A DNA stretch of 64,000 bases from Gloeophyllum trabeum ATCC 11539. Its lineage: Eukaryota > Basidiomycota > Agaricomycetes > Gloeophyllales > Gloeophyllaceae. Below are positions 48,279 to 51,518 of the stretch, piece after piece; the stretch's first letter is position 1, and each line of letters begins with the position of its first letter. Where the stretch lies: positions 2,017,414 through 2,081,413 of the forward strand of contig NW_006920412.1 of the NCBI RefSeq assembly GCF_000344685.1, in the 5' to 3' direction. The notes under the pieces are model-generated. The model was not told the origin of the DNA. It worked only from the letters and a program-made list of their open reading frames with translations, and ran no database searches. The position numbers and the translations under genes are program-made.

Positions 48279-51200
48279 TCAGACTACAGTTGACTTCAGA
48301 ACTCCCGCCGCGACGTTCCCACCCGCTACTGGGCGCGTCAGCTTGTTTGCGCCTATACATACAACACCAACATGAGACTAGGCAATAATCTGGCATACGA
48401 CAAGCCCTTACCCTTCTGTACATTGAACTGCGCGCTGGAGAACCCATCGAGGTTGGCAGTTTCTATGGACTGCGTCAGCGAAACCCGGCCACCGAAAGAT
48501 GCTCGCGTACTGATATTGTTCATTGCGTAATAAGTCGCATTGATGTTATTGGCGTCGATGGTTAGTGTAAAGAATCCTCGGTAAGAGCCTTCACTCCATT
48601 GCAAGTCAGGGTTGGCTGCCACATAGACTTGAGATATCTTGTCTGCTGCTTGCGGGGAGATCCCTGCACCAAATGCCGAGGAAGAGGTAACTGCTGTTCC
48701 GGCAAACTCGACCCCAATAGCGCCATCCCCGGTATTAGGGTTGTACCTTGCATGCTCTTTTAACAGGTGAGTCTCTCGGATCAGCCTCCAACTTACGTGG
48801 TCGTATCATTCGGGACTTGTCAGGTACGGTTAATCCAGCCATTACGAGTGGAACATGTCACTCACTCGCCAGATCGGAGACCCAGTTTGCATGACTATCT
48901 CCTGACAGGATGATTGTATTCGTGATATGATTGTTGTACAGATAGTCCAAGACACGCATTCGATTCGCGCGGTAACCGTCCCAAGCGTCCTTAAGTGGAT
49001 TAACGCAATAAAGGCGATGAATGAAAGTCAGCTTATCTGCTTTGAGGGTAGGCACTAACCAGATCAACTGTTCAACAGAAACATTCCATTATTACATGCC
49101 GGGTCATGGAGAAGGTACACAACACGCACAGGTACCAGATTCGTTTAGTTGCGAAAACACGATTTGCTGACTGGGGAGCGAAGGTTCAAGTTATTTCTGA
49201 CGTGAGGCTTCCCGTCGAGGGTCCGGACGTACCCAATGATTCGCCAAACGGCACCTCGCGCCTGCGACTCGGACAGAGAACTGTAAAACCCTGGAGGAAG
49301 AGTTCACTCTGGACCGTCCCGGACACTGGGCGTTCGGGAAACTTACAATTTTCTTGTTCGAATCCCATGATTGAGCGATTCGGATACGAAGAGATGGTAT
49401 TGACATCTGTAATCTGCCTTACACAAGTGCTCATATACATGGTGGCTTAGGACTCACATTCTGTGAAAGATCTCATGGCTTGCTAAACCTCTGTCGCCAT
49501 GAACGACTCACCAGTATTGAAGTATAGCTGCATCTGTTATTCAGTATTATTCAGAGAATGCTCAGGCAGGTTACTTACATCAGTAATATCTCGATCATAT
49601 TGGCCTTGGTGAGTTTCACTCATTAGCAGAATATCATCATCGAAGATATTGCCGTGGCTAACTTACGGGTATCTAGCATCGTTAGATCCTGTCCATTCGC
49701 AGTCAGTGAGCTCGTACTCGCGCATAAAACAATCAGCCCTACCAGGAGCTTTCCGATCTGGAAGTTGCGCCATATTCGTAATTTGTCGTCTGCTACTACC
49801 TGCCGGATAGCTATGGCACAAGCGCTATGAGAGGACGGGCGAAAGCTCGACAATGCCGGATATACTCACGGATCCATTCATGGTATGCTCGGACAGCAGC
49901 GAGCTTTCTGTCCGTGAAGCATGCACCAGAAGGCGAGAAGCTGCATCCTACTGTCGTATCATTCGAATCCGCCGTCCCGGCCTTCCACGCTTGGTCGGCG
50001 ACCTTAGTGTTGGTGAGTGGCCTCAATGGTGAGCACTAATTATGAAGATGAGCTGACCTCATGGTCATCCTGCGCAGAAATCGAGATTTAACCACTTGAC
50101 GCCCGTTTGAACGTAGAGCCTGACTCACCCTTCCGCGGCGATATCAGTGAAAGCTATACATGCAGCACTGAGTCTGACCTACCAGACTGTTATCCACGGG
50201 GAATACTGATGGGCATAAATGAGACTGGTGTCTGTGCGATATTGGCCTAGGCGCTGACGATAGTCGAAGATAGTCGCCAACTCTCTGCCCAAGGTCTGTC
50301 GGCCAATCGAGGCCCTGCAAAGAGCAAACTCGGCATTGTGGCTCCAAGGAAAGAAGGAAGCTGTAAATACCCGTTCCCTAGAGACTCGTAGATCTGAATG
50401 AATTGTCAGCGCCATAGATGGATGGTAGGTGGCCATCACTGACATAATCACCCAGGTGGATGAAGATATCTGCCGAGGTATTATGCGCAGCATATCCGTA
50501 TGCATTGAAATAACCTCAAGGGATATCGCACTCTTTTCAGTCGGATGTCATCCGGGCTCGACACCGACTTACCGTCCTGCCATCTAGAGCATGAGAACAC
50601 CGCCAAGGTTAACGGTTTGCCGCCGTTGACGTCCTCCGCGGGGGCTACGACGGTTAAATTAGGTGAGCATGCCACAGGTTAGAGAATGTAGACATACTAT
50701 CAGGGTCCGGCAGGGTCCTGGTCGCTCCTACGGGGCTCACCGTAACGGCATTAGTGCAATCAGCGAATTGGTACCAGTATCGAGTATCAGCTTTCAATCC
50801 CGTAGCTTCAACTTTGACGGTCCAGTCGACATCGTAAGAGGTGAATGCTTCTCCAGAATTGATCACCGACCCAGACAGTCGCGGGTTGTCGAAGACTTTA
50901 TAGGAGACACAGATCGGAACATCGACGTCTGGTCCCGGGTTCGCAGTCGATACAGGAGCAGCACGGGTCCACAGTAGAACAGATGTGTCAAACGGATCTC
51001 CCTACAGTACGCGATGCTCCAGAACAACAGCAGCGGGTCGTGTGTTTGATTAGTACTTACACTGGCAACTATCAGGTTTCTTCAGTCTACTGCCGTAAAC
51101 GCAATATCAGGTATTACCTACCGTTGTGGGTGAAGTTGACTCCACCGCTCCAGACGAATGGTGCCTACAGCCAGTCATTCAAAAGCGTCCTTGTCACAAA

Positions 51201-51518
51201 GAAGTAACCCCTAAATTAGGGTCCTCACATTGCTGAAGTCGCCACCATAGAAGGTAGGATAATGCTCGTCGCTGAAGCCGCTGGAGCTCTCTACCTGTCT
51301 CTTTGCATGCCGGACCTGACGTTCGTGGATCTCGCGAGTATCATGACCGAACTTTTTAAGATGCGGATTATTACGATCCATCAAGTGACTTCTGAGTAGC
51401 CAAGGCGTCCCACCTGCGGATGTTCGAAGAAGGGAGAACGGTACACCAAGTTGCGGTCCAAAAGTTGAGTACCCACAACTGCTGGTATCAGCAGCAGGAT
51501 GCTGGCGATTAGATGCAT
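48279..51518 (-). CDS. Secreted PhoD-type alkaline phosphatase with 24 exons
   Basis: I rebuilt 24 exons whose frame closes at 623 residues. A signal peptide (MHLIASILLLIPAVVGTQ) indicates secretion or vacuolar targeting. The PhoD order follows: an Ig-like N-terminal domain with HNVASGDPFDTSVLLWTRA, then the metallophosphatase core with FIHLGDYIYESLG, VWDDHEVADQAW, MLDTRQYDRDITD, WFYSSLSESQARGA, LSGDSHANWVSD and the end LTRPVAGGNVAAG. Metal-ligand Asp/His residues of GDY, DDHE and GDSHAN are intact. The enzyme releases phosphate from phosphomono- and diesters. Several exons are extremely short: 51061-51068 (8 nt), 50371-50393 (23), 50129 (1), 50058-50069 (12), 49667-49688 (22), 49512-49527 (16), 49060-49067 (8), 48797-48815 (19). 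Introns are mostly 50-60 bases. Confidence 0.88.

What the first reader, a model, noticed from the sequence alone, without database searches (positions are those of the whole stretch)
50129..50129. Candidate single-nucleotide exon in the PhoD phosphatase gene
On the minus strand the exon before ends ...ACA GTC TG (50183) and the exon after starts GAT GAC CAT GAG (50069). Between them are two normal-looking introns, 50130-50182 (53 nt, GTAGGT...AAG) and 50070-50128 (59 nt, GTGAGT...CAG), separated by exactly one base, G. Including that G completes the Trp codon and gives VWDDHEVAD, the conserved PhoD metal-binding motif. Skipping it shifts the frame and destroys the motif. With it, the 24-exon model closes exactly at 624 codons. 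Exons of one base are among the rarest gene structures known. A competing reading, a single 118-nt intron starting at an internal GTCTGG donor (50187), would keep frame but delete Val-Trp from the motif.
Basis: partly seen in the sequence, partly recalled or inferred. Interest (0 to 1): 0.88.

Follow-up and report, generated by a model that had tools for sequence, protein, structure and literature searches.

The report
One-base exon in mushroom phosphatase gene
A wood-rotting fungus appears to splice a single DNA letter into the message for a phosphatase enzyme, completing the codon just before the enzyme's metal-binding residues, and matching errors in the database proteins of many mushroom relatives suggest that this one-letter exon is old, shared and usually misread.

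Summary
The described structure is in the sequence at 50129 (minus strand). The window is Gloeophyllum trabeum ATCC 11539; the gene encodes a PhoD phosphatase. Two ordinary GT-AG introns (53 and 59 nt) flank one G that completes Trp in VWDDHEV.

Best evidence: of 109 listed homologues from five Agaricomycete orders, 82 are damaged at VW|DDHE; of 17 from Cantharellales, Auriculariales and Phallomycetidae none is, nor any of 9 unnamed, apparently spliced proteins. The damage spells two donors: inserts after VW that begin with V continue S/R/C/G in 16 of 16 (phase-0 donor GTNNGT); 15 of the other 19 begin with a T-codon residue (phase-2 donor TG|GTNN). The database protein of this genome deletes VW.

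One-base exons are a known kind (plant APC11 and VPS55, Fusarium CYP621A); my searches showed none in a basidiomycete. No RNA of this species and no relative's DNA could be read; mature mRNA alone cannot exclude a single GT-CA intron; and the gene tree does not resolve the exon's origin.

The parts
48279..51518 (-). PhoD phosphatase gene, 26 exons, 610 aa, 25 GT-AG introns of 48-70 nt
   Evidence: Model; Pfam PhoD 337.5 bits (cut-off 27) and PhoD_N 80.4 (cut-off 30); homologue alignment
50183..50314 (-). Exon 9 (132 nt), ends in phase 2 with TG of the Trp codon
50130..50182 (-). Intron 9, 53 nt, GTAGGT...GGAAG; CTGAT (50147-50143) lies 18 nt from its 3' end, a possible branch site
   Evidence: Donor 8.5 bits, acceptor 2.3 bits (weak); CTGAT by motif listing
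50129..50129 (-). Exon 10: a single G, third base of Trp294
   Evidence: relatives
50070..50128 (-). Intron 10, 59 nt, GTGAGT...GCGCAG; none of the branch-like motifs that I listed occurs in it (true of 9 of the 24 introns of that call)
   Evidence: Donor 9.7 bits, acceptor 5.7 bits; motif listing
50058..50069 (-). Exon 11, 12 nt, GATGACCATGAG = DDHE
   Evidence: DD aligned with the WDDHE of 2yeq
50182..50187 (-). GTCTGG, weak donor whose use deletes Val-Trp; the database protein of this genome (P0002) has that deletion
   Evidence: 1.8 bits; P0002
49458..49460 (-). Exon 17, 3 nt (AAT), between introns 49461-49511 and 49407-49457 (51 nt each); completes Glu-Tyr
   Evidence: damaged in 0.65 of 109 core homologues, 0 of 9 unnamed spliced proteins
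49060..49067 (-). Exon 21, 8 nt (TTGATCTG)
   Evidence: junction damage 0.30 before and 0.14 after it in the core group
51061..51068 (-). Exon 4, 8 nt (TTGCCAGT)
   Evidence: junction damage 0.15 and 0.10

Best explanation
Base 50129 is a one-nucleotide exon. Each flanking intron (53 and 59 nt) is recognised on its own, across the intron, and the two are removed one after the other, because two spliceosomes can hardly sit on an acceptor and a donor one base apart. Either order gives TG-G-GAT. The better sites of intron 10 suggest that it leaves first, after which intron 9 uses AAG|GGATGACC. The result is the Trp codon directly before the metal-binding Asp pair of PhoD. The exon is probably an old feature shared by several orders of Agaricomycetes that gene-prediction programs mostly fail to write. 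Shown: sequence, coordinates, frame, splice-site scores, protein-level damage in relatives. Inferred: inclusion in RNA of this species, splicing order, DNA structure of relatives, age.
For: Sequence and frame. Both introns of ordinary length with strong donors. Skipping the base gives a stop at codon 316; keeping intron 9 a stop at 295, keeping intron 10 a stop at 336. Removing Val-Trp costs 14.7 bits of the PhoD score. Bacterial relatives: W-DDH[ED] contiguous in 79 of 80 loci. Relatives with damage exactly here: 82 of 109 in five orders, against 0 of 17 in three early-branching groups and 0 of 9 unnamed spliced proteins. The rate of length damage at the VW|DDH junction is 0.73 against a median of 0.009 per position. 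Kinds of damage: exact loss of VW in 21 proteins of all five orders; inserts that spell a phase-0 donor (16 of 16 V-type inserts with a second residue continue S/R/C/G) and a phase-2 donor (15 of the 19 others). Two Armillaria proteins, 94.8% identical, show one kind each; two Lentinula proteins, 98.5% identical, are intact and VW-deleted. Neolentinus insert KGE...GQ, 63 nt, fits AAG-G-GTGAG... with a 59-nt intron (my reading).
Against: No RNA read of this species and no DNA of a relative was available. Acceptor 1 is weak and lacks a pyrimidine tract, and no listed branch motif is seen in intron 10. 27 of 109 core annotations are intact at the motif, as is Amylostereum P0121, which was left out of that count. 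An unnamed ORF, P0122, reads straight through VWDDHEV while another intron seems unspliced, so some relatives may have no intron there. The gene tree puts the three intact Phallomycetidae beside damaged Hymenochaetales, and three Hymenochaetales (two intact, one damaged) beside Auriculariales, with some weak nodes, so a single clean origin is not shown.
Confidence: 0.88

Rival explanations
1. One 112-nt intron with non-canonical ends, GT...CA (50182-50071) or TA...AG (50181-50070). It gives exactly the same mRNA and protein; the inner AAG-G-GTGAGT would be chance.
For: Cannot be excluded by mature mRNA or protein. In 2.9% of shuffles AG-G-GT arises in a suitable place.
Against: The shifted ends score -8.5 bits (acceptor) and -11.2 bits (donor); with a strong inner donor the chance figure falls to 0.125%. 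An intron of that length would be an outlier among 48-70 nt. The V-S/R/C/G inserts show an inner GTNNGT donor after TGG in relatives.
Confidence: 0.05
2. One 118-nt intron from GTCTGG at 50187, so that the protein lacks Val-Trp. This is what the database protein P0002 of this genome shows, and what the first reader named as the competing reading.
For: It keeps the frame, and 21 of 135 listed homologues share exactly this deletion.
Against: Donor 1.8 bits, rank 61 of 207. W before DDH[ED] in 79 of 80 bacterial loci, and VW or a like pair in 9 of 9 unnamed spliced proteins. Loses 14.7 bits of the PhoD score. A 98.5% identical Lentinula protein keeps VW where its sister has lost it.
Confidence: 0.03
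3. The exon is real in G. trabeum and perhaps a few relatives, but the damage elsewhere has mixed causes, such as mispredicted ordinary single introns, so it is not an old shared exon. This differs from the best explanation only about relatives.
For: V-type inserts alone could be retained single phase-0 introns. 27 of 109 core annotations are intact. The gene tree does not resolve the origin.
Against: A single ordinary intron would not make programs pick a poor donor before VW (21 proteins, five orders) or add one T-codon residue before DDHE (8 proteins: P0027, P0033, P0051, P0052, P0054, P0066, P0075, P0112). Both imply a phase-2 donor or worse facing a phase-0 acceptor.
Confidence: 0.15
4. 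An assembly error or a decaying gene: one base is missing or extra near a normal intron.
For: A one-base deficit is what a sequencing error would make.
Against: The rest of the 610-aa frame is open and conserved, and the same deficit is implied in relatives sequenced separately.
Confidence: 0.01

Closest known systems
Fusarium CYP621A one-nucleotide exon (PMC12940212; parts 1 and 2 of 3 read)
   Same: Fungal nuclear gene; the same AGGGT core; a G that completes a codon in a conserved motif; two short introns in place of one of twice the usual length; gene models wrong at the motif in almost all species.
   Different: An ascomycete genus and a P450; supported there by SRA reads. Here a basidiomycete phosphatase, with relatives in several orders but no RNA.
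Plant APC11 and VPS55 1-nt microexons (PMC4674806, parts 1 and 2 of 3 read; PMC8831610, passages)
   Same: One-base exon, missing from annotations, conserved over long times; sequential intron-defined splicing proposed.
   Different: Plants; proven by base changes (APC11) and RNA (both); flanking introns there can be long (the 1-nt exon lies 333 nt into a 422-nt stretch in APC11). Splicing here is not proven.
Stwintrons, nested fungal introns (PMC5639578; passages; others seen only in the listing)
   Same: Two short introns with almost nothing between them (a 109-nt case in A. niger of 52 + 57 nt), removed one after the other.
   Different: In a stwintron the inner intron splits a splice signal of the outer one. 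Here each intron has its own complete donor and acceptor, and one base stays in the mRNA.
Mitochondrial one-base exons, e.g. placozoan cox1 (PMC5436844; seen only in the listing)
   Same: An exon of one base.
   Different: Organelle introns, not spliceosomal ones (recalled).

Membership tests
One-nucleotide spliceosomal exon | Exactly one base between an AG acceptor and a GT donor | tested here: met
   AAG-G-GTGAGT at 50129
One-nucleotide spliceosomal exon | Both flanking stretches are complete introns of usual size | tested here: met
   53 and 59 nt against 48-70 nt for the other 23; three sites in the range of the gene, acceptor 1 just below it
One-nucleotide spliceosomal exon | Inclusion needed for frame and a conserved motif | tested here: met
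One-nucleotide spliceosomal exon | Conserved in relatives | tested here: inconclusive
   Strong at protein level; DNA of relatives not readable here; gene tree ambiguous
One-nucleotide spliceosomal exon | Base present in mature RNA of this species | not testable with these tools
   No G. trabeum transcript among the listed hits
One-nucleotide spliceosomal exon | Changing the base changes the cDNA | not testable with these tools
   Bench test
Stwintron | A splice signal of one intron is split by the other | tested here: not met
   Both introns have unbroken GT...AG ends in the sequence
Zero-length exon / recursive splice site | AG directly followed by GT | tested here: not met
   AAG-G-GT, one base between
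PhoD phosphatase (PF09423) | Score above Pfam's cut-off and conserved metal-ligand Asp pair | tested here: met
   337.5 bits against 27; DD aligned with WDDHE of 2yeq, the pair being D265/D266 by spacing with PMC4223295 section 17 (numbering inferred); activity not tested

The most novel reading that the evidence does not exclude
One-base exons are a hidden but ordinary class in intron-dense mushroom genomes: they arise wherever two introns happen to land one base apart, intron-defined splicing tolerates them, and they last for very long times unnoticed because annotation programs cannot write them. This PhoD exon, shared across several Agaricomycete orders, would be one of many. With 25 introns placed at random in 1,833 coding bases, at least one 1-nt exon is expected in 28% of such genes.
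Probability: 0.4. Interest if true: 0.85.

Novelty: new member of a known kind. Interest (0 to 1): 0.72.

Why it matters
It would be the first one-base exon in a basidiomycete that I could find (literature searches; open-licence papers only) and, by protein evidence, one shared across several orders. It means that the database proteins for this enzyme are broken at the active site in 82 of the 109 core homologues listed here. It also offers a cheap method: errors in annotated proteins that spell out splice donors and cluster at one codon in many species reveal exons too small for gene finders. And it gives a natural case, in fungi that can be grown, for asking how the spliceosome handles an acceptor and a donor one base apart.

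Tried and rejected

Tried without result: a scan of viral contigs for relatives (3 pattern matches, no relative). There 77 of 80 read W-DDHE, 2 read W-DDHD, and 1 (L053) was not resolved by my pattern; a first, narrower pattern had caught 58 of 80. A search with a 186-aa piece for G. trabeum transcript fragments listed none. The other PhoD-like locus of the genome (L006) is distant and shows no intron between Tyr and DDHE, so it is no paralogous test. A search for papers on G. trabeum and PhoD gave one paper, on Frankia by its title (listing only).

Considered and rejected: the two introns as copies of each other or as multiplied introns. Their similarity ranks 29 of 300 intron pairs and the 115-bp stretch was found once in the genome (that search skips very common words). 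A stwintron: each intron has complete signals. Fisher tests (1.5e-9 and 1.1e-5) are given for direction only, because the proteins are related.

Rows and limits: searches found 7,549 and 7,954 proteins but list the best 120 each, so all counts are of listed proteins. The counts use 135 of the 188 listed proteins; P0121-P0173 (short pieces and many apparently bacterial proteins) were left out; of these P0121 (Amylostereum) and P0126, P0144 and P0151 are intact at VW, while P0123, P0124 and P0125 are damaged there. Orders were given to genera from my own knowledge; only G. trabeum was looked up.

Full report
What it is. The window lies in a contig of 3,215,449 bases, the same length as the contig of the database protein GLOTRDRAFT_37518 of Gloeophyllum trabeum ATCC 11539 (P0002). 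The species belongs to the Gloeophyllales; it is a brown-rot fungus (recalled). The gene on the minus strand, 51518-48279, encodes a PhoD phosphatase: Pfam PhoD 337.5 bits against a cut-off of 27, PhoD_N 80.4 against 30, with a signal-like N-terminus (own reading). Only two solved sequences matched: B. subtilis PhoD (2yeq) and 9uya.

Observation. Every coordinate of the finding is right. The corrected model has 26 exons and 610 residues. Internal exons include 1, 3, 8, 8, 12, 16, 19, 22, 23 and 26 nt, and all 25 introns are GT-AG of 48-70 nt. Homologues showed that my first model had two wrong intron ends and had read through a 48-nt intron. A 3-nt exon, AAT, completes Glu-Tyr.

Strength of the sites. 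With matrices from the other 23 introns of the gene, donor 50182 scores 8.5 and donor 50128 scores 9.7 bits (ranks 11 and 5 of 207 GT). Acceptor 2 scores 5.7. Acceptor 1 is weak, 2.3 against a minimum of 2.5. The GTCTGG donor behind the database protein scores 1.8, rank 61. Shuffles give AG-G-GT in a suitable place in 2.9% and AG-G-GTRNGT in 0.125% (all). The matrices are small and come from this gene alone.

Why the base is needed. The motif is PWITVWDDHEV. The B. subtilis paper lists metal-ligand changes that abolished activity (among them D265, N271, N272) or drastically reduced it (D207, D266) (PMC4223295, section 17 and passages). The chain reads WDDHEVENN, whose spacing fits those numbers, so the exon completes the Trp codon directly before two metal ligands; that numbering is my inference. 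Skipping the base gives a stop at codon 316, keeping intron 10 a stop at 336, keeping intron 9 a stop at 295. Deleting VW costs 14.7 bits of the PhoD score. The database protein of this genome lacks VW, lacks the residues of the 16-nt and 3-nt exons, retains part of another intron and starts late.

Relatives. I aligned 135 listed homologues (searches, each a capped list of 120) with the model. In Agaricales, Polyporales, Russulales, Hymenochaetales and Gloeophyllales, 27 of 109 are intact at the motif and 82 are damaged: 21 lack exactly VW, 26 have an insert between W and D, 24 lose DDHE too or are otherwise broken, 11 are other cases that keep DDHE. In Cantharellales (11), Auriculariales (3) and Phallomycetidae (3) all 17 are intact. 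Nine unnamed proteins of 598-617 aa, five of them on contigs of about 2.0-2.3 kb, are all intact. An unbroken frame of that size is what spliced RNA would give; that they are RNA is inferred, and an intronless gene would look the same.

Tree. In the gene tree seven of the nine unnamed proteins branch inside groups with damage; P0006, P0007 and P0013 are 84.6-84.9% identical to the VW-deleted Gloeopeniophorella protein. Against a simple history: the three intact Phallomycetidae group with five damaged Hymenochaetales, and three other Hymenochaetales (P0055 and P0103 intact, P0120 damaged) group with Auriculariales; several nodes are weak. So the point of origin and any losses are open.

The spot stands out. 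Over the core group the rate of length damage is 0.73 at the VW|DDH junctions and 0.65 at the 3-nt exon, against a median of 0.009 per position. Only a loop at 111-113 is higher (0.84), and there the unnamed spliced proteins vary too (1.00), while they show 0.00 at both tiny exons. The 8-nt exon at 49067-49060 comes next among the junctions (0.30, unnamed 0.11). The three Phallomycetidae are one residue short at the 3-nt exon, so that exon may be older than the 1-nt one.

The damage spells the donors. Thirty-six proteins carry extra residues right after VW. Seventeen start with V; of the 16 with a second residue, 16 have S, R, C or G, exactly the residues of AGT, CGT, TGT and GGT: a GTNNGT donor read after TGG (chance frequency of these residues 0.222, p 3e-11). 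Of the other 19, 15 start with F, L, S, Y, C or W, residues of TNN codons: TG followed directly by GTNN (p 2e-5). Eight of the 15 are a single residue followed by DDHE, as when a program shifts the donor by 4 nt (GTNN|GT) to mend the frame. Four fit neither class (P0001, P0020, P0068, P0078). Such repairs, and the choice of a GTCTGG-type donor that deletes VW, make sense if a phase-2 donor faces a phase-0 acceptor, a deficit of one base. Two Armillaria proteins (94.8% identical) show one kind each; two Lentinula proteins (98.5% identical) are intact and VW-deleted. The Neolentinus insert of 21 residues (63 nt) starts K-G-E and ends G-Q, which fits AAG, G, GTGAG... and a 59-nt intron, the length seen here (my reading).

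Mechanism. The two introns are of ordinary size and carry their own signals, so intron definition with removal one after the other is the likely route, as proposed for APC11 (PMC4674806). After removal of intron 9 the donor of intron 10 still scores 8.7 bits; the reverse order leaves AAG|GGATGACC. The order is not shown.

Origin. Neither similarity of the two introns (rank 29 of 300 pairs) nor genome copies (one found) suggests duplication. The gene is intron-dense. A bacterial amylase gene in basidiomycetes is reported to have gained many introns after transfer (PMC3584928, abstract and passages); whether PhoD has such a history was not tested. With 25 introns at random in 1,833 bases, a 1-nt exon is expected in 28% of genes, so two introns landing one base apart would be enough; the puzzle is then why so few are reported. 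Nelson and Syed propose rescue after loss of a base beside an intron (PMC12940212).

Novelty. One-base exons are a known kind: Arabidopsis APC11 (PMC4674806), APC11 and VPS55 in land plants (PMC8831610, passages), Fusarium CYP621A (PMC12940212). Searches for one-base exons, and for micro-exons with basidiomycete, Agaricomycetes or mushroom terms, showed no basidiomycete case; only open-licence papers are held, and most were seen as listings. PMC4014442 and PMC3990503 were read in passages only and mention settings of mapping software.

Limits. No RNA of this species, no relative's DNA with this structure. Mature mRNA cannot separate the one-base exon from a single GT-CA intron; a base change or partly spliced RNA can. 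Counts are of related, listed proteins. An intact annotation does not show that the structure is absent.

Noticed in passing
49458-49460 (minus strand): A 3-nt exon (AAT) in the same gene, missed in many homologues: length damage 0.65 of 109 core proteins, 0 of 9 unnamed spliced proteins. It would be among the smallest exons too.
   Followed up: partly
49060-49067 and 51061-51068 (minus strand): Two 8-nt exons; the junction before the first is the next most damaged one in relatives (0.30).
   Followed up: partly
G000:C3:2539094-2539627, L006: A second, distant PhoD-like gene of the same genome, with no intron between Tyr and DDHE and apparently an intron right after DDHE, as in the window's gene (by eye).
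   Followed up: partly
P0055, P0103, P0120: Three Hymenochaetales proteins branch with Auriculariales rather than with the other five, perhaps an old second copy.
   Followed up: no
48279-51518 (minus strand): PhoD here has 25 introns while bacterial relatives 37-43% identical have none; transfer from bacteria followed by intron gain is a possible history.
   Followed up: no
P0122: An unnamed 138-aa ORF reads VWDDHEV without a break but seems to run into an unspliced intron after DLTD: a relative without introns at the motif, or partly spliced RNA.
   Followed up: no
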